Assembly: GCA_934636865.1 (NCBI GenBank)
Contig: CAKUBI010000003.1
Location: forward strand, 59,496 to 123,495
Length of the DNA: 64,000 bases
Direction of reading: 5' to 3'
From: an uncultured Oscillospiraceae bacterium
GTDB taxonomy: Bacteria; Bacillota; Clostridia; Oscillospirales; Oscillospiraceae
The position numbers and the translations under genes are program-made. Shown here in pieces: positions 1 to 63,571 of this stretch. Every line of letters starts with the position of its first letter. Position 1 is the stretch's first letter. A model generated the notes under the pieces. It worked only from the letters and a program-made list of their open reading frames with translations, did not search any database and was not told where the DNA came from.

Positions 1-241
1 GCGCATAGGTCTGCACGTGCTCGTGGTCGTCGATCAGGCCCGGCAGCACGCATTTTCCGTGCAGATCGACGATCTCGGCGTCCGGCCAGATACCGCTCTC
101 CCTTCCCGCGCGGATGAGGCGTATCGCTTCGCCGCTGCTGCCGCAGTAGAAGAACCTTCCGTTTTCAATAATGAAAGCTTCGACCGTGTCCTTTTCATTT
201 TTCATTGTATAAACCTTCGCATTGACGTACGCTTTTGCCAT
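1..241 (-). CDS. YtcJ-type amidohydrolase, N-terminal part only (runs off left edge)
   Basis: Only the first 80 codons are present; the rest lies left of the window. The start is the ATG at 241, preceded by a GGGAGG ribosome binding site. The readable part is the N-terminal beta-sandwich strand and first metal-binding strand of an Amidohydro_3/YtcJ hydrolase: YVNAKVYTM near the start, then DLHGKCVLPGLIDDHEHV, where HEH is the HxH metal pair. It is a paralogue of the divergent gene at 555, which begins with the same YVN..VYTM pattern and VLPG(M/L)ID block. Family members hydrolyse amide or cyclic imide bonds using a mononuclear or binuclear metal site. The substrate is unknown; shared promoter repeats with the TRAP and gcvP transcripts suggest the same pathway. 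Confidence 0.85.
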   Translation of the reverse strand, partial: MAKAYVNAKVYTMKNEKDTVEAFIIENGRFFYCGSSGEAIRLIRAGRESGIWPDAEIVDLHGKCVLPGLIDDHEHVQTYA

Positions 242-321: not shown

Positions 322-382
322 ATTATACCAGCAAAAGCGGATAGCTTCCACAACCAAGCCGGCCGCAATGCCCCAACCAACC
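322..382 (-). promoter_or_regulatory. Candidate activator-dependent promoter of the left amidohydrolase gene
   Basis: Read on the minus strand: repeat GTTGGTTGG (380-372), then CTTGGTTGT (358-350) 22 bp later, directly followed by a poor -35 (GGAAGC, 349-344), a 16-bp spacer and a perfect TATAAT (327-322). The same layout occurs at 407-466 and 10490-10549. A good -10 with a weak -35 abutted by a repeat is what a class II activator site looks like. The assignment is inference from sequence only. Confidence 0.6.
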
Positions 383-406
383 ATCCATTTACTCCACTGT
401 GCTAAA

Positions 407-466
407 TTTGGTTGGCATCAATTAACTCGTTTGGTTGTGTTCATTTTCTCAATTACGCATTAACAT
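407..466 (+). promoter_or_regulatory. Candidate activator-dependent promoter of the amidohydrolase-TRAP operon
   Basis: Two direct repeats, TTTGGTTGG (407-415) and TTTGGTTGT (430-438), lie 23 bp apart. The inner copy abuts a weak -35 (GTTCAT, 439-444), followed by a 16-bp spacer and TAACAT (461-466). This is the same geometry as the other two promoters of the region. An alternative -10 (TATAAT, 514-519) lies nearer the gene but has no good -35 at 16-18 bp (TTGTCA is 21 bp upstream). Confidence 0.55.
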
Positions 467-554
467 AAGTGACACAAAAAGTTGAATTGTCAAAGAACCA
501 ATGAGTTAAAATGTATAATTTCTGAACATCCGTAAAAAAGGAGGATGATCGAAA

Positions 555-2153
555 ATGTTCCACTCGACAGCCTATGTGAACGGTACTGTTTATACAATGG
601 AGCGCGAGGGCGATAAGTGCTCGGCCTTCGTTGTGCAGGACGGCAAATTCGTTTACTGCGGCAGTGACGAGGAAGCGAAGAAGCTCGCCGACGAAGTGAT
701 CGATCTGCATGGCGCGGCAGTGCTGCCCGGCATGATCGATACGCATCAGCATCTTCTGGCTTATGCAAGCGGCCTCACCAAGCTCAATCTGAAGGCAGCG
801 GCCTCGCTCGAGCAGCTCAAGCAGATGCTGCACGACTACGCAAAAGACGTGCCCGCGGGCGAATGGATCCTCGGCGTCGGATTCGACAACGAGAAGTTTG
901 AGGGCAGCAAGGCCATGCCGACCCGCTGGGATCTGGACGAGGCCTGCGCCGACCATCCGGTGCTCCTCTCCCGTTACTGCCTGCACTTTTTCTCCGCCAA
1001 CTCCATGGCGCTGAAGCTCGGCGGCATCGACCGCAGCTACCGGCCTCCTGTTGAGGGCAACGTCAAGTACGACGAGAACGGCGAACCGAACGGCATCATC
1101 TGCGACGGCGCAGGGACCCACGTGCTCTCCATCGTGCCGGACAAGCTTGCTTCCTTTGAAGCGAAGAAGGATATCATCGTCAAGGCCCTCGGCCAGCTCA
1201 ACTCCTACGGGCTGACGGGCGTGCATCCCATCCAGGGCAAGCACTGCGACCTGATGGAGTACACCGACATCTATCAGGCGCTCAAGGACGAAGGCCGCCT
1301 GACGGCGCGCATCTACATCAACTACGATGTACTGCCCAATTGCAGCATCCGCACAGGTCTCGGCGACGAGATGCTGAAGTTCGGCTTCTACAAGTCCTAC
1401 ATGGACGGCAACCTCAGCGGCCGCACCGCTTTCATGCTGGAGCCCTACAGCGACGACCCGAGCACCTGCGGCGTCTGCAACTACGAGAGCCAGGAGGCCA
1501 TCACCGAGCGTCTGCGCGAGGGCTATCAGCGCGGAATGCAGATCGGCGTGCACGCCATCGGCGACCGTGCGGCCGACATGCTCATCACCGCGATCGAGAC
1601 CATCTACCGCGAGGATCCGCGCCCCGACCCGCGCTTCCGTCTCATCCATATGACCACGCTCAACGCTTCTCTTGTCGAGCGCATGAGCAGGCTCCCCGTC
1701 ATCGTGGATGTCCAGCCCGTGTTCATCCCCATCAACGTCCGCAGCGCGGACAGCCGCATGGGCGACACCGAGCGCGGCGCCTACACCTTCGCTTACAAAA
1801 AGATGCTGGACGCGGGCCTGATGCTCACCGGCGGCTCGGACAGCCCCTGCGACTCGTTCAACCCGCTCGACGGCGTTTACGCGATGGTCAACCGCAAGGA
1901 TTACACCGGCTATCCCGAAGGCGGCTGGCACCCGCAGGAGTGCATCGGCGTTTATGACGCGCTGCGGATGTACACCTACAACGCCGCCTACTCCTCCTAC
2001 GAGGAAAACATCAAGGGCACCATCAGGGAAGGCAAGCTCGCCGACTTTGTCATCCTCGACGCCGACGTGTTCAAGGTCGACCCGATGAAGATCAAGGACG
2101 TCAAGGTCGAAAAGACCTACCTCGGCGGCAGACTCGTTTACTCCCGCGATTAA
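555..2153 (+). CDS. YtcJ-type amidohydrolase (Amidohydro_3 family)
   Basis: This 532-residue protein belongs to the YtcJ/Amidohydro_3 branch of the amidohydrolase superfamily, TIM-barrel metal hydrolases acting on amide, N-formyl or cyclic-imide bonds. Visible motifs in order are the HxH metal pair at residues 64-66 (IDTHQH), the YMDGNLSGRTA block matching the family FADGSLGSRTA strand, VHAIGDRA with a metal-ligand histidine, RLIHMT, and the C-terminal LTGGSDSPCDSFNPL containing the conserved Asp. There is no signal peptide, so it is cytoplasmic. The ATG start follows AAAGGAGGATG. It heads a unit with the TRAP genes 72 bp downstream, so it probably acts on the imported compound. The substrate cannot be read from sequence. 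Confidence 0.9.
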   Translation: MFHSTAYVNGTVYTMEREGDKCSAFVVQDGKFVYCGSDEEAKKLADEVIDLHGAAVLPGMIDTHQHLLAYASGLTKLNLKAAASLEQLKQMLHDYAKDVPAGEWILGVGFDNEKFEGSKAMPTRWDLDEACADHPVLLSRYCLHFFSANSMALKLGGIDRSYRPPVEGNVKYDENGEPNGIICDGAGTHVLSIVPDKLASFEAKKDIIVKALGQLNSYGLTGVHPIQGKHCDLMEYTDIYQALKDEGRLTARIYINYDVLPNCSIRTGLGDEMLKFGFYKSYMDGNLSGRTAFMLEPYSDDPSTCGVCNYESQEAITERLREGYQRGMQIGVHAIGDRAADMLITAIETIYREDPRPDPRFRLIHMTTLNASLVERMSRLPVIVDVQPVFIPINVRSADSRMGDTERGAYTFAYKKMLDAGLMLTGGSDSPCDSFNPLDGVYAMVNRKDYTGYPEGGWHPQECIGVYDALRMYTYNAAYSSYEENIKGTIREGKLADFVILDADVFKVDPMKIKDVKVEKTYLGGRLVYSRD

Positions 2154-2225
2154 TTTTATCTGTTATATGCGGCAGCATATTTCATAGAAGAAACAGAACT
2201 AAAAATGAAGAATGGAGAAAATATC

Positions 2226-3311
2226 ATGAAGAAATTTGTAGCCCTGCTTCTTGCGCTCGTCATGTCTCTGTCTCTCGCCGCCTGCGGCGATAAGACCGAC
2301 GACAGCGGCAATAACAACAACACCGCCGACACCCCGCAGATCGACTCCAGCGAGTATGCGCTCAAGACCCAGATCACCTCTACCGACAAGATCACCATCC
2401 GCATCGCGGAGGACGCTTCCGAGATTCATCCCTCCCACATCGCGCTGGTGAACTGCTTCAAAGAGCCCCTTGAGGCTGCCTCCAACGGCAACATCACCGT
2501 TGAGATCTATCCCAACGGCATGCTCGGCTCTCTGACCGAGAACGTCAACTCCATGCAGATGGGCGACCTTGAGATGGCCTACCTGAACGACTCCATCCTC
2601 TCCGGCTTCATCCCCGAGTTCGCCGTGATCGGCCTGCCCTACCTCTTCACCTCCGTTGACGCCGTCCACAGCGCGATGAACGGCGCATTCGGCGACGAGA
2701 TGAGCGCCCGCCTGCAGGACCAGCTCGGCATCGTCAACCTCGGCTGGTGCGACGTCGGCTTCCGCAACATCACCAACTCCAAGAAGCCCATCACCTGCGT
2801 GGATGACCTCAAGGGCATGAAGATCCGCACCATGACCAACGACCTGCACGTCGCTTACTTCCAGTATCTCGGCGCTCTGCCCACTCCGATGGCCTTCAAC
2901 GAACTCTATACCGCCATGCAGCAGGGCACGGTCGACGGCCAGGAGAACCCCACCGCGATGATCTGGAACAACAACATCTATGAAGTCCAGAAGTACATGA
3001 CCGTTTCCGAGCACATCTGGACCTCCACCGCTCTGTGCGTCGCCGAGAACTTCCTCGAGAGCCTGCCCCAGGACTATCAGGACGCCATCCGCGAGGCCGG
3101 TGCCAACACCACCGCCCTGCAGGCCGAAATGATCACCGAGCAGAACACCGACCTGCTGAGCAACATCGAGGCCGCCGGCGTTGAGGTCACCACCCTCTCC
3201 GACGAGGCCAAGGCCGAGTTCCAGCAGAAGGCCAAGGAATCCGTCTGGGTCACCGCCGCCGACCTCTATGGTCAGGACCTGATCGACCTCGCCGACTCCT
3301 TCAACAAGTAA
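2226..3311 (+). CDS. dctP: TRAP transporter substrate-binding lipoprotein (DctP family)
   Basis: This 361-residue extracytoplasmic receptor delivers a substrate, usually an organic acid, to a DctQM permease driven by a Na+ gradient. It starts with a lipoprotein signal (MKKFVALLLALVMSLSLAAC, lipid-modified Cys20). The start at 2226 was chosen over an in-frame ATG at 2205 because GGAG sits 8 bases upstream and the signal sequence then begins correctly. The DctP core follows: DDLKGMKIRTM with the Arg that usually pairs with the substrate carboxylate, then PTPMAFNELYTAMQQG and VDGQENP. It sits between an amidohydrolase and dctQM, pointing to uptake of that enzyme's substrate. An intercistronic hairpin follows. 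Confidence 0.95.
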   Translation: MKKFVALLLALVMSLSLAACGDKTDDSGNNNNTADTPQIDSSEYALKTQITSTDKITIRIAEDASEIHPSHIALVNCFKEPLEAASNGNITVEIYPNGMLGSLTENVNSMQMGDLEMAYLNDSILSGFIPEFAVIGLPYLFTSVDAVHSAMNGAFGDEMSARLQDQLGIVNLGWCDVGFRNITNSKKPITCVDDLKGMKIRTMTNDLHVAYFQYLGALPTPMAFNELYTAMQQGTVDGQENPTAMIWNNNIYEVQKYMTVSEHIWTSTALCVAENFLESLPQDYQDAIREAGANTTALQAEMITEQNTDLLSNIEAAGVEVTTLSDEAKAEFQQKAKESVWVTAADLYGQDLIDLADSFNK

Positions 3312-3390
3312 GCATCTCTTATTGATCCAGCTTTTGAACCGATCGTTTCTTAGCAGCTGCCGCATAATCGCCTGCTGAAACGGTTGCCGC

Positions 3391-3423
3391 GGGGAAGGCT
3401 GCGGGAGCTCCTCAGCCTTCCCC
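3391..3423 (+). terminator. Intercistronic stem-loop between dctP and dctQ
   Basis: An 11-bp perfect stem (GGGGAAGGCTG paired with CAGCCTTCCCC) with an 11-nt loop lies in the 191-bp gap after dctP. It is followed by CCCTCATC rather than a U-tract, so it is more likely an mRNA-stabilising or partial-termination element that raises receptor over permease levels than a full terminator. Confidence 0.6.
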
Positions 3424-3502
3424 CCTCATCATTACAGCCCTGTCAAATATTGTCGATCCCCCTATCAAAACACGCCGCTATCAAAGGATGTGAACAAAAA
3501 AC

Positions 3503-3994
3503 ATGAAATTTCTGAAAATGCTGAACAACCACTTTGAGGAATATCTTCTGGTGCTTCTAATGGCCGCCGAAGTTATCATTGTTTTTGCGCAGGTCGTCAC
3601 GCGCTTTATCCTCAAATCCCCCCTCGCGTGGAGCGAGGAGATCGCCCGTTACATGTTTATCTGGCTCGTCTGGATCGGTGCAGCCTATGCAACGAAGGAA
3701 AACAAGAACATCAAGATCGATATTCTTTCCAGCAAGTTCACCGGTGCGATGAAGGTCTTTGCCGACATCTTCGTTGCCATTCTGTTCATCGGCCTGATGA
3801 TATTCATGCTTTACACCTCCGGTAAAGTCACCTACACCGTTTACCAGAGCAAATCCATCGCCACCGGCAGCCACATGCCGATGTGGATCGCATGGTTCTC
3901 CCTTCCGCTGAGCATGGCCCTGATGACCTTCCGCTTTATCCAGAACAGCGTCCGCAGCATCAAGGACAAGAAGAAAGGAGAATTTGACGCATGA
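3503..3994 (+). CDS. dctQ: TRAP transporter small permease subunit (DctQ)
   Basis: This 163-residue membrane protein has four hydrophobic segments, the usual DctQ size and topology. The family signature WSEEIARYMFIWLVWIGAA follows the second segment. DctQ is an integral part of the TRAP permease and helps the DctM transport domain assemble and contact the receptor. The gene overlaps dctM by four bases (ATGA), so the two are translationally coupled. It forms one tripartite transporter with the neighbouring dctP and dctM. Confidence 0.93.
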   Translation: MKFLKMLNNHFEEYLLVLLMAAEVIIVFAQVVTRFILKSPLAWSEEIARYMFIWLVWIGAAYATKENKNIKIDILSSKFTGAMKVFADIFVAILFIGLMIFMLYTSGKVTYTVYQSKSIATGSHMPMWIAWFSLPLSMALMTFRFIQNSVRSIKDKKKGEFDA

Positions 3995-5271
3995 TCTTCA
4001 AAGCTATTCTGATTTTCGCGCTCCTCTTCCTCTTTATGATGATGGGCGCGCCGATGGCCGTCGCGCTGGGCGCTTCCACGGTCATCACACTGGTCTGCAC
4101 CACCAGCCTCGGCATCACCACCATCGCGACCGCCTGCTTCAGCGGCCTTGACTCGTTCCCTCTGCTGGCCGTTCCGTTCTTTATTCTGGCGGGCAACCTG
4201 ATGAAATTCGGCGGTCTGTCAAATAAGATCCTCGAGTTCGCCGACGCGCTCGTCGGCCACATCAAGGGCTCTCTCGGTATGGTCGCGGTCGTCGCCTCCA
4301 TGTTCTTTGCCGCCCTGTCCGGCTCTTCCCCCGCTACCGTCAGCGCCATCGGCTCTCTGACCATCCCCAAGATGGAAGAGGAAGGCTATGACCGCGCTTA
4401 TTCCACCGCGCTGAACGCGGCCGCCGGCACCATCGGCGTCATCATTCCCCCCAGCATTCCGTTCGTCATCTACGGCGTCGTGGCCAACGCCTCCATCGCC
4501 GATATGTTCAAGGCCGGCATCCTTCCCGGACTCATGATCGGCGTCGTGCTGATGATCGTCAACTACATCGCCGTCACGAAAAACGGCTATGGCATGAAGA
4601 ACTATGCCGGCAAGCACTTCTCCTTCAGAAAACTTTGGAAGGCCCTCAAGGATACTTGGCTCGCCCTGATGGTCCCCATCATCATTCTCGGCGGTATCTA
4701 TGCCGGTATCTTCACCCCGACCGAATCCGCTGTTGTCGGTATCGTCTATACCCTGATTGTCGGCGTCTTCGTTTATAAGGAACTGACCCCCGCCACCATC
4801 TATGATGCGCTGCGCGAGTCCGTTCTGGTCAACGGCCAGACGATGTTCCTCGTCGGCTTCTCCATGGGCTTTGCCCGCTTCCTGACGATGTCCCAGATCC
4901 CCGCCTCCATCGCCATGAAGATCGGCGCGATCGACAGCAAGGTCGTCGTTCTCCTGATGATCAACCTGTTCCTGCTCATCGTCGGCTGCTTCATCGACAG
5001 CATCTCCTCCATGCTCATCCTCACGCCGATCTTCCTGCCCATCGTGCAGAGCTACGGCATGAGCGCCGTCCAGTTCGGCATCGTGATGACCGTCAACCTC
5101 TGCATCGGCTTCATCACCCCGCCCTACGGCGCAAACCTCTTCATTGCAAGCGCGATCTCCGATGTCCCCATCATGAACATCGCCAAGAAGATCATGCCGA
5201 TGATCGGCGCGATGCTTGTTGTGCTGATGCTCCTGACCTTCATCCCCGCGCTCAGCACCTTCGCTCTCTAA
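3991..5271 (+). CDS. dctM: TRAP transporter large permease subunit (DctM)
   Basis: This 426-residue protein is hydrophobic throughout, with about 12 membrane segments, the normal DctM length. It is the Na+-coupled transport channel of the TRAP system. Family hallmarks include GSSPATVSAIGSLTIPKM, AAGTIGVIIPPSIPFVIYG and CIGFITPPYGANLFIAS, which hold the hairpin loops of the two half-transporters. It starts within the dctQ stop codon after AAAGGAG. It is the last gene of the operon, with a strong terminator 23 bp downstream. Confidence 0.96.
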   Translation: MIFKAILIFALLFLFMMMGAPMAVALGASTVITLVCTTSLGITTIATACFSGLDSFPLLAVPFFILAGNLMKFGGLSNKILEFADALVGHIKGSLGMVAVVASMFFAALSGSSPATVSAIGSLTIPKMEEEGYDRAYSTALNAAAGTIGVIIPPSIPFVIYGVVANASIADMFKAGILPGLMIGVVLMIVNYIAVTKNGYGMKNYAGKHFSFRKLWKALKDTWLALMVPIIILGGIYAGIFTPTESAVVGIVYTLIVGVFVYKELTPATIYDALRESVLVNGQTMFLVGFSMGFARFLTMSQIPASIAMKIGAIDSKVVVLLMINLFLLIVGCFIDSISSMLILTPIFLPIVQSYGMSAVQFGIVMTVNLCIGFITPPYGANLFIASAISDVPIMNIAKKIMPMIGAMLVVLMLLTFIPALSTFAL

Positions 5272-5293
5272 GCTTTATCCTGTCCTTTTCAAT

Positions 5294-5339
5294 AACGGGA
5301 ACGGCCCTCCGGCGTAAAGCCGAAGGGCCGTTCCCGTTT
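5294..5339 (+). terminator. Terminator of the amidohydrolase-TRAP operon
   Basis: A nearly perfect 19-bp stem, AACGGGAACGGCCCT... pairing with ...AGGGCCGTTCCCGTT, with one mismatch and a short loop. It lies 23 bp after dctM, and its 3' end is GTTTATC. It can act on both strands. Confidence 0.85.
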
Positions 5340-5400
5340 ATCTCTCAGTATGCGTCTCTTTTCTTCCGAAAGCAAACCGCCACAAACCGCCAGGGCGCTG

Positions 5401-5433
5401 AAAAGACCGCCGGCAGCCTGCCGGCGGTCTTTT
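5401..5433 (-). terminator. Terminator of the ucpA-like/gcvPA/gcvPB/NAD-kinase-like operon
   Basis: The stem AAAAGACCGCCGGCAG pairs with CTGCCGGCGGTCTTTT, a symmetric hairpin with A/T tracts on both sides, located 35 bp past the last gene on the minus strand. Confidence 0.85.
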
Positions 5434-5467
5434 CCATTTCAACAACACACAAACAGCTCTGAAACTT

Positions 5468-6592
5468 TTACTTGCAGCACATCTGTGCAAAATACCCATA
5501 CCCGCACAGGACGCTGTAGTAGCCGCGGAGGGATTCGTTAACGGCGGCGTCGCCGCAGTCGATGTGCAGCGTGTGGTCATGGATGGAGAGGAGCTTTGCC
5601 TCCGGGGAGATGATCTGGATGTTCTTCTTTCCCACGGCCTTTAAAATGCGGGCGCTGAACTGGTGGTTGCCGCGCCCGAACACGAAGCCCTGCCCGCCGA
5701 TGGGCGAGACGATGATCTTCATGCTGCCGCCCCTGGCGTACTCCCAGAGCTGCCGCTCGGTCACGTCCTTGGCGATAAGCTTCTTGTCCTTCACAATGTC
5801 CACGCCCAGCAGCTCATAGTCGATGCCGAGCCGCCTGGAAATGCACTTCGCGGAGGATCCGGAGCCGACGGCGTAATAAACGCCCGGCTCCATGTGCTCT
5901 TCAAGGTACGCCGCGATGACGTTCATCTGGTCTGCCTCGGTCGAAAAGCCGCTCTGCTTCATCGACTGCAGACGCTCCGGCTGGTCAGGCACGCGCATCA
6001 CACCGTAGAGCTTGGCAGAGACATGGCCCGTGCGGTACGCGTCCTCGTCGAGGTCAACGACCTCGCGCTGCGCGCTCGTCATCACCGTGCCCTGCGCGAT
6101 CGCCGCGGCGATCATGCCCGCGGACTCGGGGTCGAGCGCGAACACGGCGGACTGGATCTTCACGCCCGCCGGGATGCCGAGCACCGGCACGCGCTCGCCG
6201 ATGGCCTCGCAGATGTTGCGGGCCGTGCCGTCGCCGCCTGCAAAGAGCAGAAGATCGACGGTGGCTGCGGCGATATTCTTCGCCGCAGCCACCGTGTCGA
6301 GAGGAGACGTCTCATCGTGAGACTGTGTATGAACCACTGTGTAGGGGAGCCCCAGCTTCCGGCACAGGCTCTCGCCCATGTCACCGGAGGCGGTATAGAC
6401 CATGATCTGCTCGCGGTGGGGCATCAGCAGGCGCATGGCGCGCTCTGCCTTGCTGTTCGCTTCGGGCACGGCGCCCTTTTCGCGCGCCGCGGCCAGCACG
6501 GCCTGCCCGTCGGTGCCCTTGAGGGCGACCTTACCGCCCATGCCCGCGATGGGATTGACGATAAGGCCGAGCTTGATCTTAGACGAGGCCAT
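5468..6592 (-). CDS. ATP-NAD kinase family protein (AcoX-like)
   Basis: This 374-residue protein has the NAD kinase fold: LIVNPIAGMGG at residues 10-20 and the nucleotide loop FAGGDGTARN at 117-126. It belongs to the AcoX-like group (COG3199) rather than housekeeping NadK, and such proteins are often encoded inside catabolic operons next to dehydrogenases. Its start overlaps the end of gcvPB by 14 bases with little upstream SD, so translation is probably coupled to gcvPB. In this operon it could supply NADP or phosphorylate a related ligand for the dehydrogenase. That role is inference, since the activity of this subgroup is poorly defined. Confidence 0.85.
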   Translation of the reverse strand: MASSKIKLGLIVNPIAGMGGKVALKGTDGQAVLAAAREKGAVPEANSKAERAMRLLMPHREQIMVYTASGDMGESLCRKLGLPYTVVHTQSHDETSPLDTVAAAKNIAAATVDLLLFAGGDGTARNICEAIGERVPVLGIPAGVKIQSAVFALDPESAGMIAAAIAQGTVMTSAQREVVDLDEDAYRTGHVSAKLYGVMRVPDQPERLQSMKQSGFSTEADQMNVIAAYLEEHMEPGVYYAVGSGSSAKCISRRLGIDYELLGVDIVKDKKLIAKDVTERQLWEYARGGSMKIIVSPIGGQGFVFGRGNHQFSARILKAVGKKNIQIISPEAKLLSIHDHTLHIDCGDAAVNESLRGYYSVLCGYGYFAQMCCK

Positions 6593-8138
6593 TCTGCTTC
6601 TTGTAGGCGCGCCAGGTCACGCACAGCTCGCGCCAATCCTTGATGTGGTCGTTCTCCAGCTTGGAGATGGGACCGGCATACGGCGCGTTGAGCACGACCT
6701 CGGGCGTGGTGTAGGCTTCATTGCTGATCTGCACGAGCGCGTCGACATACTCGTCGATATCCGCCTTGGAGTAGGACTCGGTCGGCTCCGGCGTAAACGG
6801 CTCGGGCACGATGAGCGGGTGATGGCTCGCGAAGAAGCGCTGGAAGCCGAAGTCGAGCAGGTGACGGTTGACGTCCTCGGCGCTCACGCCGGTATCCTTG
6901 TAGAGCTTTTCAAAGCTGTAGCGCACCTGCTCAAGGCGGTGGGGCGCTTCCTCGGCCCAGGACATCGAAACGCCCTTGACCTCGGTGAGCATGCGCTTCA
7001 TCATGTAGTTGTTGTTCAGAATGGCGGTCTCGGCCACGGTTTTGAGACCGTCCTTGCCGAGGCTCATGATCCACGCATAGGCACGCAGGACCGCGGCGAG
7101 AGAGCCGTGGAACTGACGGACCTTGCCGATGGAATACTCGCCGTCGTAATCGGTATAGTACTTCTTGCCGTCGAAGCGGACGCGGGGACGGGGCAGATAC
7201 TTTTCAAGCTCCGCGCTCACGCACTGCGCCGCGCAGCCGGGGCCCATGCAGCCGTGGGGAGAGGAGAAGGCCTTGTGCAGGTTGAAGTGGCACAGGTCCG
7301 CGCCGAGCTCCTTGGCGCGCACAATGCCGAACAGGCCGTTGTAGTCCGCCATATCGCACACGCACAGGCCGCCCGCCTCATGCACGACATCGACGAACTC
7401 GCGGATGATGGGGTTGAACACGCCCGTATCCTCGGGGTTCGTGATGAAGATACCGGCGGTTTTCTCGCTCACAGCGGCCTTGAGCGCTTCGATGCTGGGA
7501 TAGCCGTTGGCCTCGGGATAAAGGCTGATGACCTCAAAGCCCTTGGTGGCGGGCGCGGCGGAGTCGATGGGGTGGGAGAGGATCGTGGTGATGATCTGGG
7601 TGCGCTGGTTCTCTTCACCGCGGTCGCGGAAATACTGCTTCAGAACAGCGGCGTTGGCATAGATGCCCTGACCGCCGCCGCCGGGCTGGAAGGAAACGGC
7701 GTCAAGGCCGGAGATCTCCTTCATGATCTGCTCGAAATCATAGATGAGCTTGAGCACGCCCTGGCTGGTCTCGTCGTCCTGATAGGGGTGCATCTCGGTG
7801 AACTTATGGGAGCGGACGAACTGCTCGTTGATCTTGGGGCTGTACTTCATCGTGCAGGTGCCAAGGCCGATATCGACGTTCAGGTCCTGGCCGATGGTCT
7901 CCTGCGACAGGCGCAGGAAGTGACGCAGCACCTGGGGCTGGGCCAGCTCCGGAAGGTCGGGCTTCTGCCTGCGCTTGAGGGACGCGGGCATGAGCGCGGA
8001 GACGTCGCCGATGACCTTGGCGGCCTCCCCGGACACGTCGGGCACCAGCACGCCGCGGCTGCCGGGCACGCTCTGCTCATAGATGATGGCTTCGTCCCAC
8101 TGTGCTTCGTGGAAATTTCTCTTCTTCAGTTCAGACAT
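6579..8138 (-). CDS. gcvPB: Glycine dehydrogenase-like P-protein, subunit 2 (GcvPB family), divergent
   Basis: This 519-residue fold-type I PLP enzyme subunit carries the GcvPB landmarks LGTCTMKYSPKINE (residues 92-105) and HPYQDDETSQG (117-127). The cofactor lysine is Lys289 in HFNLHKAF. In glycine cleavage this subunit pairs with GcvPA to decarboxylate glycine onto the lipoyl arm of GcvH. The loop after the lysine departs from the family: the usual KTF..PHGGGGPG is here KAFSSPHGCMGPGC, and the C-terminal region has FASHHPLIVPEP. No gcvH or gcvT lies in the window. It follows gcvPA by 17 bp with a strong SD. A different amino acid substrate is plausible; plain glycine decarboxylase is the alternative. 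Confidence 0.88.
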   Translation of the reverse strand: MSELKKRNFHEAQWDEAIIYEQSVPGSRGVLVPDVSGEAAKVIGDVSALMPASLKRRQKPDLPELAQPQVLRHFLRLSQETIGQDLNVDIGLGTCTMKYSPKINEQFVRSHKFTEMHPYQDDETSQGVLKLIYDFEQIMKEISGLDAVSFQPGGGGQGIYANAAVLKQYFRDRGEENQRTQIITTILSHPIDSAAPATKGFEVISLYPEANGYPSIEALKAAVSEKTAGIFITNPEDTGVFNPIIREFVDVVHEAGGLCVCDMADYNGLFGIVRAKELGADLCHFNLHKAFSSPHGCMGPGCAAQCVSAELEKYLPRPRVRFDGKKYYTDYDGEYSIGKVRQFHGSLAAVLRAYAWIMSLGKDGLKTVAETAILNNNYMMKRMLTEVKGVSMSWAEEAPHRLEQVRYSFEKLYKDTGVSAEDVNRHLLDFGFQRFFASHHPLIVPEPFTPEPTESYSKADIDEYVDALVQISNEAYTTPEVVLNAPYAGPISKLENDHIKDWRELCVTWRAYKKQNGLV

Positions 8139-8155
8139 GGTTTCTTCCCCCTCCC

Positions 8156-9523
8156 TTACAGGATCTCAGCGAGCGCATCGGCCAGCTTGTCGATATCGCT
8201 CAGCGCGGTCTTTTCGGTGACGCAGACCAGCATGGACTGGCCGAGCTGCGGCATCTCGCGGCTGAGATCATAGCCGCCGAAGATGTGCTTGGCGAGCAGC
8301 GCCTTGTTGACCTCGGCAACGGTCTTGCCCGTGCCGTCGAAGTTCAGCACGAACTCCATGAAGCTGTGGCTGCCGGCATACGGCATCGTCACGCCCTTGA
8401 GCCCGGCAAGCTTCTTCTGCGCGTAGTTACTCTTGTAGAGGATGTTCTCGCCCAGCTCGCGCATGCCCTCGGGGCCCATCAGGGCGAGGTACACGGCGGC
8501 GGTGACGGTCCACAGGCCCACGCAGGTGCCGAGGTACTCAACACCCTTGTCGCGGACGTAGTAGCTCGTGCGCTCGGGCAGGGCGCGGGAGTAGCCGAAC
8601 TGGCCCTTGGAGTTCTTGAAGATGTTATGCAGGTGATGCGGATAGTTCATCACGTACTTTTCTTCCTGGCGGGTGGCGAGATAGCCGCCGAGCCCCGCGC
8701 CGAAGCTCATGTGGATGCCGAGGGGCTGGATCTCGCCGCAGGAGATGTCCGCGCCGTAGTCGGCGGGCGGCTCGGCGATGCCGAGGGAGGACGGATCGGC
8801 GTAAACGACATATTCCGCGCCGGCGGCGTGCGCCAGCTCGCCGATCTCCTTGCCCTGCTCTTCAAAAAAGCCGAGGAAGCAGGGGTTCTGGATGAAGACG
8901 GCGGCGACGTCGGAGTCGAGCTTTGCCTTGAGGTCCTCAAGGTCCAGCTGGCCGTTTTCCTTGGCCTTGACGCCGATGAGCTGCATGCCTTCGCAGTAGC
9001 ACTTCATCTGGGAGAGCAGGCTGGGGTTCATGTTCTCGGGCACGAGCGCTTTGCCGCGGCCGTTGATGCGGCGGGACATCATCAGTGCCGTGGACGCGGC
9101 CTGACCGCCGTCGTAGGTCGGGAAGCTGACGACGTCGAGGTCCAAAAGCTCGCCCATCATGCTGGAGAACTCGAAAAACGCCTGGCACTTGCCGTGGTCG
9201 GCGTAGGTATCGCCGCTGTAGGCGGTCAGGAACTCGCTGCGGCCGTTGATCTCATCGCAGATGGCGGGAACATAGTGGTCATAGCAGCCCGCGCCGAGGA
9301 AGCTGATGTTCTCTTCGCAGGTGGAGTCCTCAGCGAGGATGGAATTCATGTGCTTGCTCAGCTCCTGCTCGGTGGTGAGGGGAGCAGGAATGTCGAGCGG
9401 CTTTTTCATGCGGACCTCATCGGGAATGAAGGCGTAGATCTCCTCCACGCTCTTGGCCCCGATGAAATCCAGCATCTCTTTGCGGACAGCTTCATTGCTG
9501 TTCGGAATATAAGGATACTGCAT
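8156..9523 (-). CDS. gcvPA: Glycine dehydrogenase-like P-protein, subunit 1 (GcvPA family), divergent
   Basis: This 455-residue partner of GcvPB has the opening PYIPNSNEAVRKEML, the FLGAGCYDHYVPA block (residues 75-87) and YDGGQAASTALMM. GcvPA and GcvPB together form the glycine decarboxylase heterotetramer of Firmicutes. The strongly conserved family block TPYQPE(I/V)SQG is replaced here by SGDTYADHGK at residues 103-112, an unusual change close to the active site. The gene lies 42 bp after the UcpA-like dehydrogenase gene with an AGGAGG site. No glycine riboswitch precedes the operon. Family membership is secure; the substrate is open. Confidence 0.88.
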   Translation of the reverse strand: MQYPYIPNSNEAVRKEMLDFIGAKSVEEIYAFIPDEVRMKKPLDIPAPLTTEQELSKHMNSILAEDSTCEENISFLGAGCYDHYVPAICDEINGRSEFLTAYSGDTYADHGKCQAFFEFSSMMGELLDLDVVSFPTYDGGQAASTALMMSRRINGRGKALVPENMNPSLLSQMKCYCEGMQLIGVKAKENGQLDLEDLKAKLDSDVAAVFIQNPCFLGFFEEQGKEIGELAHAAGAEYVVYADPSSLGIAEPPADYGADISCGEIQPLGIHMSFGAGLGGYLATRQEEKYVMNYPHHLHNIFKNSKGQFGYSRALPERTSYYVRDKGVEYLGTCVGLWTVTAAVYLALMGPEGMRELGENILYKSNYAQKKLAGLKGVTMPYAGSHSFMEFVLNFDGTGKTVAEVNKALLAKHIFGGYDLSREMPQLGQSMLVCVTEKTALSDIDKLADALAEIL

Positions 9524-9565
9524 ATCTGTTGCCTCCTGTTGTGTCGTAATATGATCGTCCGCGCT

Positions 9566-10360
9566 TTAAGCGTGGAGAATATCGAAGGTCTCAGGCAGGG
9601 TGCTGCCGCCGTCGATCACCTGCTCGGTGCCGGTGATATACTTGGAATCGTCGGAAGCGAGGAATGCGACCAGATCGCCGATCTCTTCGATGTTGCACAG
9701 GCGCTTGAGCGGGATAAACGCGGCCATATCGCGCATCGCGCTCTCGGGGTCCTCCGGACGGCTGTCGCGGCAGACCTGCTCAACCTTCGGAGTGCGGACC
9801 CAGCCGGGAAGAACGGCGTTGACGGTGATGCCGTGGGGGCCGCCCTCATAGGCGAGCGCCTTCGTAAAGCCGAGGACCGCGCCCTTGGTCAGCGCGTAGG
9901 TGCTCTGGCCCTCGTCAACGACCTTCACGCCGGTGACAGAGGAGGTGTTGATGATGCGGCCGTAGTTCGCCTTGAGCATGTAGGGCCACACGGCTCTCGC
10001 CACGTTCCACACGCCGAGGATGTTGACACCGATGATGAAGTCGCGGGTCTTCGTGTCCATGTCCTCGAACTTGACGCGGCGGTTGACGCCGGCGTTGTTG
10101 TGCAGGATGTCGATCTTGCCGTAGGTCTTGACCACATCATCGACCATCTGCTGCACCTGCTCAAGATTGCTGACGTCGCACTTGCGGTAGTCGGTTTTCA
10201 GCCCGGCCTTCTTGAGCTCTTCGGCAGAAGCGGCGACGGCGTCCGTCAGGTCAACGAGGACAACGGTGGCCCCATGCTGGGCCAGCACCTTTGCGCAGCC
10301 AAAGCCAATGCCCTGCGCCGCACCGGTGACGATCGCGATTTTCCCATCAAGATTTCCCAT
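9566..10360 (-). CDS. UcpA-like short-chain dehydrogenase/reductase
   Basis: This 264-residue classical SDR has the cofactor motif TGAAQGIG (residues 12-19), Asp37 at the end of the second strand (favouring NAD over NADP), NNAG at 88-91, and the catalytic Ser141, Tyr155 and Lys159 (YALTK). The overall match, ending in VIDGGSTLPE, is to the UcpA subgroup. The start at 10360 was chosen because AAGGAG lies 9 bases upstream and the ORF before it does not look coding. It is the first gene of the operon with gcvPA, gcvPB and the NAD-kinase-like gene and is driven by a promoter sharing repeats with the amidohydrolase promoters. It probably oxidises or reduces an alcohol or carbonyl intermediate. Confidence 0.9.
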   Translation of the reverse strand: MGNLDGKIAIVTGAAQGIGFGCAKVLAQHGATVVLVDLTDAVAASAEELKKAGLKTDYRKCDVSNLEQVQQMVDDVVKTYGKIDILHNNAGVNRRVKFEDMDTKTRDFIIGVNILGVWNVARAVWPYMLKANYGRIINTSSVTGVKVVDEGQSTYALTKGAVLGFTKALAYEGGPHGITVNAVLPGWVRTPKVEQVCRDSRPEDPESAMRDMAAFIPLKRLCNIEEIGDLVAFLASDDSKYITGTEQVIDGGSTLPETFDILHA

Positions 10361-10489
10361 AGTCTTATTCTCCTTATACTGTATAAATTGATCGTTTATC
10401 TCTCTGTCGAGAGCATCAGCCTTACGAAGGGACACTTTTTTAGCCTGCTTGCATTCTCCGGTTTAAAAGTATCGCTCTTAACAGTATGG

Positions 10490-10549
10490 ATTATATAAGG
10501 ACATTTCGGAATTGTAACCGACCAATCATAGAAAAACTAAACAACCAAA
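10490..10549 (-). promoter_or_regulatory. Candidate activator-dependent promoter of the SDR-gcvP operon
   Basis: On the minus strand, TTTGGTTGT (10549-10541) and ATTGGTCGG (10526-10518) are 23 bp apart. The inner copy touches the -35 (TTACAA, 10517-10512), followed by a 16-bp spacer and TATAAT (10495-10490). This copies the arrangement at 322-382 and 407-466. The gene-free gap 10361-10697 otherwise holds only the tRNA terminator and a leader of about 120 nt. Confidence 0.65.
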
Positions 10550-34295: not shown

Positions 34296-34537
34296 CAAAG
34301 AAAGGCTGAGAAAAAGAAGCGTTTCTTCCCACCCGCTTTGCAGAGAGGGGACGGACGGTGCAAGTCCCCGTGGGAGAAGAAAGGCGGCGCTTTTGAGCCG
34401 TGCGGCGGAAATGCCGCGCCGGTCCCCCCCGTTACCGGGGAACGAAGTGCCCCGCATCCAGCGGGGAATTCAGGTGGAACCACGGGTTACAATGCTTAAC
34501 TCGCCCTGAGCCGAACACCGGCTCGGGGCGTTTTTTC
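34296..34537 (+). ncRNA. Glycine T-box riboswitch upstream of glyS
   Basis: The leader between promoter and glyS has a stem I with AGAGAGGGGAC, a probable GGC glycine specifier near 34383, and the T-box core AGGTGGAACCACGG at about 34470-34485. Its UGGA complements the UCCA end of uncharged tRNA-Gly (discriminator U73). It ends in a terminator hairpin (34502-34530, CGCCCTGAGCC/GGCTCGGGGCG) plus T6. Uncharged tRNA-Gly should favour the antiterminator and switch glyS on. This leader explains most of the gene-free 34144-34576 interval. Confidence 0.9.
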
Positions 34538-63309: not shown

Positions 63310-63571
63310 GGTAAAAATAGAAGCGCCCTGTCCCATAAAGAGACAAAGGCGCTGACCTCTGCGGTACCACTCTTCTTGCTGTTTTTCACAGCCGCTCAAA
63401 TGACGCGATGTAACGGTCGCACCCGTCCGGTCTTACTGAAAAAATGTTCAGCCCGGCTGCTCCGAGGTGATATTCAGCCCTGCCGCGCCCCGCCTTTCAC
63501 CAAAATAGCGGTTCTCTTTGCCGCGGGGGAGGGGCTTACTTGTCCTCATCCACGCAATATTTCATGATAGC
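63310..63571 (-). ncRNA. Isoleucine T-box riboswitch upstream of ileS
   Basis: The minus-strand leader has a stem I with an AGTAAGCC segment, a probable AUC specifier (63471-63469, in GAATATCACC), and the T-box core AGAGTGGTACCGCAG (63366-63352 region). Its UGGU complements the ACCA end of tRNA-Ile. The leader ends in a terminator (GCGCCTTTGTC/GACAGGGCGC, about 63351-63322) followed by TTCTATTTTTA. Uncharged tRNA-Ile should turn ileS on. Confidence 0.9.

What the first reader, a model, noticed from the sequence alone, without database searches (positions are those of the whole stretch)
322..10549. Three promoters with identical repeat architecture define a local regulon
The promoters of both divergent amidohydrolase genes and of the SDR-gcvPA-gcvPB-NADK-like operon each carry two 9-bp direct repeats related to TTTGGTTGT. 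The copies are 22-23 bp apart (380/358, 407/430, 10549/10526). In each case the inner repeat touches the -35 position, the -35 is weak, and a 16-bp spacer leads to a -10 (TATAAT, TAACAT, TATAAT). This fits a class II activator binding tandem half-sites, as AraC/XylS-type proteins do. No regulator gene of that kind is in the window. The repeats and spacings are read directly; the activator is inference.
Basis: partly seen in the sequence, partly recalled or inferred. Interest (0 to 1): 0.85.

Follow-up and report, generated by a model that had tools for sequence, protein, structure and literature searches.

The report
Tandem-box promoters of a MocR-type regulon
Three neighbouring promoters in a gut-type Clostridia genome carry the same pair of DNA boxes, and relatives show that these boxes are very likely the docking sites of a vitamin-B6-dependent (MocR/GabR-type) gene switch: a real and conserved local regulon, but a new example of a known kind of system.

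Summary
Each of the three promoters carries two TTGGTTG-type boxes exactly 23 bp apart, and a -10 hexamer starts 23 nt after the inner box. The pair occurs nowhere else in the window and in 0 of 100 shuffles.

The same architecture stands in all eight loci with a GcvPB-like protein at least 76% identical, and in none of the 51 more distant ones; counting the window and one further genome there are 20 sites.

The regulator is most likely not AraC/XylS-like. In 8 of 8 related loci a MocR/GabR-type protein is encoded next to the SDR promoter, the only DNA-binding gene they share. In 391 Clostridia genomes the strict pattern TTGGWTG-N15-17-TTGGWTG-N23-TATAAT matches 7 places, all beside MocR genes; the pattern was written from those loci, so this shows specificity, not discovery.

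Box spacing is uniform within a genome but is 22, 23 or 24 bp between lineages; the distance to the -10 stays 23.

The window's own regulator gene was not seen and no genome is held. Activation is inferred. Direct-repeat operators are documented for MocR factors (PMC5320631): a new member of a known kind.

The parts
1..241 (-). 5' part of amidohydrolase AH1 (start codon 241-239; gene runs off the left edge)
   Evidence: the 80-aa fragment is 59% identical to AH1 of L106 and 46% to AH2 of the window; weak Amidohydro_3 match below cut-off
322..327 (-). -10 hexamer TATAAT of the AH1 promoter, 23 nt after the inner box
351..357 (-). inner (proximal) box TTGGTTG, AH1 promoter
374..380 (-). outer (distal) box TTGGTTG, AH1 promoter
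408..414 (+). outer box TTGGTTG, AH2 promoter
431..437 (+). inner box TTGGTTG, AH2 promoter
461..466 (+). -10 hexamer TAACAT of the AH2 promoter, 23 nt after the inner box
555..2153 (+). amidohydrolase AH2 (PF07969)
2205..3311 (+). TRAP transporter solute-binding protein, DctP-like (PF03480)
3503..3994 (+). TRAP small membrane subunit, DctQ-like (PF04290)
3991..5271 (+). TRAP large membrane subunit, DctM-like (PF06808)
5468..6592 (-). NAD-kinase-like protein (PF01513, PF20143)
6579..8138 (-). GcvPB-like protein
8156..9523 (-). GcvPA-like protein
9566..10360 (-). short-chain dehydrogenase (264 aa from ATG 10360-10358)
   Evidence: 264-aa relatives
10490..10495 (-). -10 hexamer TATAAT of the SDR operon promoter, 23 nt after the inner box
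10519..10525 (-). inner box TTGGTCG, SDR operon promoter
10542..10548 (-). outer box TTGGTTG, SDR operon promoter

Best explanation
The three promoters are operators of one dedicated MocR/GabR-type transcription factor (N-terminal GntR winged helix, C-terminal PLP-binding aminotransferase-like domain) encoded outside the window. A dimer with two DNA-reading heads contacts two TTGGTTG boxes about two helical turns apart on one DNA face. The inner box abuts a weak -35, so the bound factor probably recruits RNA polymerase (class II activation) when an amino-group-bearing inducer forms an adduct with its PLP. This would co-express amidohydrolase AH1, the AH2-TRAP operon and the SDR-GcvPA-GcvPB-NADK-like operon. 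Shown: boxes, spacing, -10 distance, conservation, genomic restriction, and linkage to MocR genes in relatives. Inferred: binding, the sign (activation), the inducer, and the presence of the regulator in this genome.
For: (1) 3 pairs in the window against 0 in 100 shuffles. (2) Each of the eight loci whose GcvPB is at least 76% identical carries the pair (L001, L002, L003, L004, L010, L024, L054, L057). With L106 and the window that makes 20 sites, each with a -10-like hexamer 23 nt after the inner box. Mean TATAAT match at offset 23 is 5.15 of 6 against 1.87 (sd 0.46, largest 3.2) at the 49 other offsets; 23 is best or tied-best in 17 of 20 sites and sole best in 12 of 20. (3) A MocR gene lies next to the SDR promoter in 8 of 8 loci that include that side: 7 of 7 found through GcvPB, plus L106, which was found through the regulator and the pattern and so is not an unbiased count. 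None of the other 51 loci has the pair or a MocR ortholog; the best match is 21-24% in L050. Among genes shared by these loci MocR is the only DNA-binding one. (4) In seven whole genomes the pattern hits 13 places, 12 in this cluster, reversed control 0. In eight genomes all 16 exact pairs at 22-24 bp lie in the cluster. (5) In 391 Clostridia genomes the strict composite hits 7 places, reversed control 0; each lies 33-125 bp from a MocR match. (6) The composite is found at 15 of 33 MocR loci (8 of 14 closer, 7 of 19 at 27-36% identity to L113), against 0 in 51 loci without the regulator (861 kb) and 0.05 expected from shuffles. (7) -35 hexamers are weak in 20 of 20 sites, 2-4 of 6 matches. (8) The PLP-lysine motif S-x-S-K is kept in 8 of 8; the aminotransferase part matches PDB GabR at 3e-26. 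(9) Direct-repeat operators one or several helical turns apart and a TGG/TGT group are reported for MocR factors (PMC5320631, section 9 read).
Against: The regulator gene of this genome was not seen; no genome is held, and the position it holds in relatives is occupied here by tRNA-Met and tRNA-Leu. 18 of 33 MocR loci lack the composite promoter, among them the 48% identical MocR of G213 (L104). One exact G004 site (25 bp, upstream of an HTH_3 gene) lies outside the cluster. One-mismatch pairs outside the cluster number 1, 2 and 2 at 23, 24 and 22 bp, and the reversed control gives 4, 2 and 4, so they look like background. The bare pair without the -10 is at background in the wider family: 29 of 300 genomes, reversed control about 45 by my count. 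The 7 of 7 test used a pattern written after seeing those same loci. MocR factors can also be repressors (EnuR, PMC8739950, abstract and passages seen).
Confidence: 0.8

Rival explanations
1. A MocR-type factor binds the boxes but represses these promoters (or represses without inducer and activates with it).
For: MocR repressors exist: EnuR operators overlap promoter core elements (PMC8739950, abstract and passages seen). In six loci of other lineages (L140, L142, L143, L144, L149, L150) the composite points into mocR itself, which suits autoregulation.
Against: Boxes lie upstream of, not over, the -35/-10; -35 hexamers are weak in 20 of 20 sites; the distance to the -10 is fixed at 23 nt, as expected if the factor contacts polymerase.
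Confidence: 0.13
2. An AraC/XylS-type activator binds tandem half-sites.
For: Tandem sites about two turns apart next to the -35 also suit AraC-type class II activation (recalled).
Against: Among genes shared by the related loci MocR is the only DNA-binding one; the strict composite promoter in 391 genomes stands only beside MocR genes. Unlinked AraC genes were not searched for.
Confidence: 0.03
3. A LytTR-type response regulator binds two 9-bp direct repeats about 12-13 bp apart next to the -35.
For: Box length and spacing resemble LytTR sites as recalled.
Against: No LytTR gene among the shared genes; tracking with MocR genes; the core does not fit the LytTR consensus as recalled. Unlinked LytTR genes were not searched for.
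Confidence: 0.02
4. Chance, or recent duplication of one promoter without shared regulation.
For: In L002, L004, L024 and G007 the spacers between the boxes of the two sites are 53-59% alike.
Against: 0 of 100 shuffles. Over all 16 within-genome pairs of sites the spacers are 36% alike, against 35% between genomes, and the 23 nt after the inner box 31% against 27%.
Confidence: 0.01

Closest known systems
GabR of Bacillus subtilis and the MocR/GabR subfamily of GntR factors
   Same: GntR winged helix plus PLP-type aminotransferase domain, PLP-lysine motif kept, direct-repeat operators, target genes next to the regulator gene (PMC5320631 sections 5 and 9).
   Different: Box TTGG(T/A)TG rather than the GabR box (ATACCA, recalled); spacing 22-24 bp; other target genes; the regulator gene is upstream of the SDR operon on the same strand. 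No named MocR model of NCBIfam reaches its cut-off for the L106 regulator: PdxR is best with 298.9 of 320 bits, GabR 121.7 of 600.
TauR/TauR2 regulons in Proteobacteria
   Same: Direct repeats with a TGG core (CTGGACYTAA for TauR); TauR2 regulons include COG1574 proteins and TRAP transporters (PMC5320631 section 14). That AH1/AH2 belong to COG1574 is recalled; only PF07969 was tested.
   Different: SDR, GcvPA/PB-like and NADK-like genes here; Clostridia. Taurine genes were not looked for.
PdxR
   Same: MocR-type activators of nearby genes; direct or mixed repeats (PMC5320631 section 5). Closest named NCBIfam model of the L106 regulator, below cut-off.
   Different: The genes under these promoters are not PLP biosynthesis genes. 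Inverted repeats were not searched for.
AraC/XylS activators
   Same: Tandem sites abutting the -35, class II geometry (recalled).
   Different: No AraC-type gene among the genes shared by the loci; a MocR gene is linked instead.

Membership tests
MocR/GabR-type regulon | Regulator with GntR winged helix fused to aminotransferase-like domain | tested here: met
   PF00392 + PF00155 in L001, L024, L054 and L106; orthologs in 8 of 8 loci. In the window's own genome: not seen.
MocR/GabR-type regulon | Operators of repeated boxes, distance one or several helical turns | tested here: met
   22-24 bp in 20 of 20 sites; criterion from PMC5320631 section 9.
MocR/GabR-type regulon | Conserved TGG or TGT group in the box | tested here: met
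   TTGG in 40 of 40 boxes of the 20 sites.
MocR/GabR-type regulon | Regulator gene close to its targets | tested here: inconclusive
   Met in 8 of 8 related loci; in the window the equivalent place holds tRNA genes and the left flank is unknown.
MocR/GabR-type regulon | PLP-binding lysine | tested here: met
   S-x-S-K motif in 8 of 8 orthologs; binding itself not testable.
MocR/GabR-type regulon | Direct binding and response to PLP or inducer | not testable with these tools
   needs binding and expression assays
Named MocR subfamilies (PdxR, YczR, EhuR, MocR, GabR, PtsJ) | NCBIfam model at or above its cut-off | tested here: not met
   None of the models shown for the L106 regulator reaches its cut-off; best PdxR, 298.9 of 320 bits (the best 25 of 83 shown).
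Class II activator promoter | Site abuts a weak -35 at fixed distance from the -10 | tested here: met
   23 nt in 20 of 20; -35 has 2-4 of 6 matches. Transcription starts not testable.
AraC/XylS regulon | AraC-type regulator gene linked to the sites | tested here: not met
   Genes shared by at least 4 of the 8 loci include no DNA-binding protein other than MocR; unlinked AraC genes were not searched.

The most novel reading that the evidence does not exclude
Clostridia use a strict promoter grammar for MocR factors: two TTGG(T/A)TG boxes, the inner one locked 23 nt before the -10. In it the spacing between boxes drifts by single base pairs (24, 23, 22) between lineages but moves in step at every operator found in a genome (4 of 4 sites in G298, 3 of 3 in the window and in L001), implying that regulator dimer geometry and the whole regulon co-evolve one base pair at a time. 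The grammar could be used to assign regulons to orphan MocR genes across gut Clostridia.
Probability: 0.45. Interest if true: 0.6.

Novelty: new member of a known kind. Interest (0 to 1): 0.5.

Why it matters
It corrects the predicted regulator class, gives a testable operator-promoter rule whose strict form matches only MocR-linked promoters in 391 genomes (7 of 7, though it misses many MocR loci), and ties an uncharacterised amidohydrolase/TRAP/SDR/GcvP-like/NADK-like gene set of gut and rumen Clostridia to a PLP-dependent sensor, which points to an amino-group-bearing substrate. The uniform-within-genome but lineage-specific spacing is a natural test of how operator spacing and regulator co-evolve.

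Tried and rejected
AraC/XylS and LytTR: no gene of either kind among the genes shared by the related loci. RNA elements: only two tRNAs and two T-boxes reach the Rfam gathering score in the window, none at these promoters. Using 27-36% identical MocR loci as a negative control failed in an informative way: 10 of 19 had box pairs within 2 mismatches and 7 of 19 the full composite, so they share the architecture; the negative set was then 51 GcvPB loci without the regulator (0 hits). The bare pair without the -10 is not specific in the wider family: 29 of 300 genomes, reversed control in about 45 by my count of the table; four further genomes had two or more hits (G043, G162, G235, G286) and were not examined. 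Orthologs of the regulator are rare: 4 of 300 genomes of G001's family at E 1e-80, two of them (G213, G278) only 45-48% identical; 1 of 86 of G298's genus; 4 of 299 of G006's family, two of them 45% identical. Linker length as cause of the spacing change: no indel behind the winged helix among orthologs with 22, 23 and 24 bp in the part shown, so unexplained. On the MocR tree the spacings are only partly clustered: 5 changes, shuffled mean 6.7, as low in 7 of 200 shuffles (the L105 spacing was read by eye). Promoter duplication: not supported over all pairs, some likeness in four genomes. Finding the window's own regulator: no genome is held. Contig lengths listed for MocR orthologs recur among SDR and GcvPB homologs, for example 35452, 24872, 18919 and 592514; suggestive of linkage only. 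Literature: searches listed no paper on this regulon (two listed none at all). PMC5320631: outline with abstract, sections 5, 8, 9, 10, 14 and passages read; its supplementary regulon tables were not seen, so a Clostridia regulog of this kind could be in them. PMC8739950 and PMC4944035: passages only (with the abstract of the former). No structure was predicted. On checking, the confidence of the best explanation was lowered from 0.85 to 0.8, because the 391-genome test was first described as blind and is not.
Full report
Observation. The three promoters were read directly. Each has two copies of a 7-bp box, TTGGTTG (one copy is TTGGTCG), exactly 23 bp apart: 380-374/357-351 on the minus strand (amidohydrolase AH1), 408-414/431-437 on the plus strand (amidohydrolase AH2, followed by TRAP transporter genes), and 10548-10542/10525-10519 on the minus strand (SDR, GcvPA-like, GcvPB-like, NADK-like). 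The pattern TTGGTTGN{13,17}TTGGTYG hits these three places only, with 0 in 100 shuffles. Of 6 exact TTGGTTG copies in the window, 5 are here. The -10 hexamers start 23 nt after the inner box in all three.

Conservation. A scan of the genome collection with an alignment of 17 GcvPB-like proteins (two peptide patterns) gave 59 loci. The box pair with at most one mismatch is present in the eight loci whose GcvPB is at least 76% identical to the window's (L001, L002, L003, L004, L010, L024, L054, L057; L010 and L057 are two contigs of one genome) and in none of the other 51, whose GcvPB is at most 67% identical. A further genome, G298, came from searches of 300 genomes with the pattern and with the regulator; its contig is 3,156,307 bases, the length listed for Oscillibacter sp. 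MSJ-2. Its stretch L106 has the window's arrangement with four sites: AH1 and AH2 (divergent), the SDR operon, and a fourth gene that NCBIfam names a nickel pincer cofactor-dependent isomerase, group 22. In all 20 sites a -10-like hexamer starts 23 nt after the inner box; the weakest is TACTCT (L001 AH1). The mean match to TATAAT at that offset is 5.15 of 6, against 1.87 (sd 0.46, largest 3.2) at the other 49 offsets tried; it is the best or tied-best offset in 17 of 20 sites and the sole best in 12 of 20. The -35 hexamers have only 2-4 of 6 matches to TTGACA. L003 and L054 have one site only: no pair was found before AH2, which follows the NADK-like gene within about 50 bp (sequence read by eye; L054 gene list), as in one operon.

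The regulator. In L001, L002, L003, L004, L024, L054, L057 and L106 the gene next to the SDR promoter encodes a protein of about 490 aa of the MocR/GabR type: GntR winged helix (PF00392) and aminotransferase domain (PF00155) by Pfam on L001, L024, L054 and L106, orthologs in the others by sequence. Seven of these loci were found without reference to the regulator; L106 was not. Among genes shared by at least four of the eight loci MocR is the only DNA-binding one; genes far from the cluster were not compared. The S-x-S-K motif of the PLP lysine is kept in 8 of 8, and the aminotransferase part matches PDB GabR at 3e-26. NCBIfam's best named model is PdxR, below its cut-off (298.9 of 320 bits), so the factor is MocR-like without a named subfamily. 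In L106 a strong terminator-like hairpin follows mocR before the SDR promoter (-38.7 kcal/mol, z -4.8, 1 of 200 shuffles as low), so the SDR operon seems to have its own promoter. The window itself encodes no such protein; its equivalent place holds tRNA-Met and tRNA-Leu, and no genome is held for it.

Genome-wide restriction. In the seven whole genomes behind the loci, TTGGTTGN{14,18}TTGGTYG hits 13 places: 12 in this cluster and 1 elsewhere (G004, 25 bp, upstream of an HTH_3 gene); the reversed-pattern control gives 0. Scans of eight genomes at fixed spacing with one mismatch show that each genome uses one spacing for its cluster sites: 23 in G001 (3 sites, one with a mismatch), G004 (2) and G298 (4); 24 in G002, G005 and G007 (2 each); 22 in G003 and G006 (1 each); the window has 23 three times. 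All 16 exact pairs lie in the cluster. One-mismatch hits outside the cluster: one at 23 bp (G005), two at 24 bp (G003, G298), two at 22 bp (G006, G004); the reversed control gives 4, 2 and 4, so these are background. Without the -10 the pair is at background in the wider family: 29 of 300 genomes, reversed control about 45 by my count.

Wider MocR test. MocR proteins of other clusters, 46-50% identical to that of L106, also sit beside TTGGTTG-type repeats 24 bp apart in L112 and L113 (degenerate boxes in L105 read by eye; none in L104). The downstream gene is a LysE-type translocator (PF01810) in L112, L134 and L135, an aminotransferase in L131 and a serine beta-lactamase-like protein in L136. 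A search of 391 Clostridia genomes gave more MocR relatives. Of 33 MocR loci tested, 15 carry the composite (boxes with at most one mismatch in total to TTGGWTG, 22-24 bp apart, -10 at 22-24 nt): 8 of 14 in the closer group (44-62% identical to L113, and L113 itself; the L130 hit is doubtful) and 7 of 19 at 27-36% identity. In 14 of the 15 the -10 is at 23 nt, in L138 at 22. Shuffles gave 0.02 and 0.03 expected loci, and 51 loci (861,464 bases) without the regulator gave 0. The 18 MocR loci without the composite are L104, L105, L127, L128, L129, L132 and twelve of L137-L155. The strict composite TTGGWTG-N15-17-TTGGWTG-N23-TATAAT, sought in the same 391 genomes, hit 7 places with a reversed control of 0. 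Each lies 33-125 bp from a MocR match (G1004, G1039, G1031, G755, G986, G834, G969). These seven had already been seen and shaped the pattern; what is new is that nothing else in the 391 genomes matched. The strict form misses the other composites and most MocR genes.

Mechanism. The most likely reading is a MocR dimer on two boxes about two helical turns apart, touching polymerase through the inner box at a weak -35, with PLP plus an amino-bearing ligand as the switch. MocR factors are reported to bind direct repeats separated by one or several helical turns, with a TGG/TGT group, and the spacing may vary slightly within a regulog (PMC5320631, section 9). Activation is inferred, not shown; repression remains possible.

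Spacing. Within genomes the sites share the spacing although the spacer letters do not match more than between genomes (36% against 35%), which argues against simple promoter copying; in L002, L004, L024 and G007 the two spacers are 53-59% alike, so copying cannot be excluded there.

Function of the regulon. AH1/AH2, TRAP transporter, SDR, GcvPA/PB-like and NADK-like genes suggest uptake and breakdown of an amino-containing compound (inference). GcvT and strong GcvH matches were found in G001, G002, G003, G005 and G298; G004, G006 and G007 gave no GcvT match and no strong GcvH match (completeness unknown), so the GcvP-like pair may not serve glycine cleavage in all of them.

Verdict. Observation confirmed; AraC/XylS reading replaced by MocR/GabR; new member of a known kind, with an unusually crisp promoter rule.

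Noticed in passing
window 5468-9523 and G004, G006, G007: GcvPA/GcvPB-like pair with an NADK-like gene; three of eight related genomes give no GcvT match and no strong GcvH match, so the pair may have a role other than glycine cleavage (completeness unknown).
   Followed up: partly
L106:9952-11229 (-): A fourth unit with the same promoter in G298 encodes a nickel pincer cofactor-dependent isomerase, group 22 (NF052515); not found in the window or the other seven related loci at 1e-15.
   Followed up: partly
L106:6774-7400 and 7397-7876 (+): The dctP gene appears as two overlapping ORFs in G298, an apparent frameshift or sequence error.
   Followed up: no
L001:5429-6352, L024:7666-8586, L057:3973-4896, L106:15655-16575, also in L002: A transporter gene (PF03547 in L001 and L106) lies by the SDR gene in 5 of 8 related loci and was not found in the window.
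   Followed up: partly
window 34299-34511 (+) and 63336-63561 (-): Two T-box leaders above the Rfam gathering score.
   Followed up: no
G004:C14:9880-9911 (-): Exact box pair with 25-bp spacing upstream of an HTH_3 regulator gene, outside the cluster; chance or a further target.
   Followed up: partly
L107 (G213), MocR at 8369-9826: A 48% identical MocR lies in the same stretch as a BKACE gene (PF05853) among what look like lysine-fermentation genes (recalled); no box pair found (L104).
   Followed up: partly
L140, L142, L143, L144, L149, L150: In a distant MocR group the composite promoter points into the mocR gene itself, suggesting autoregulation.
   Followed up: partly
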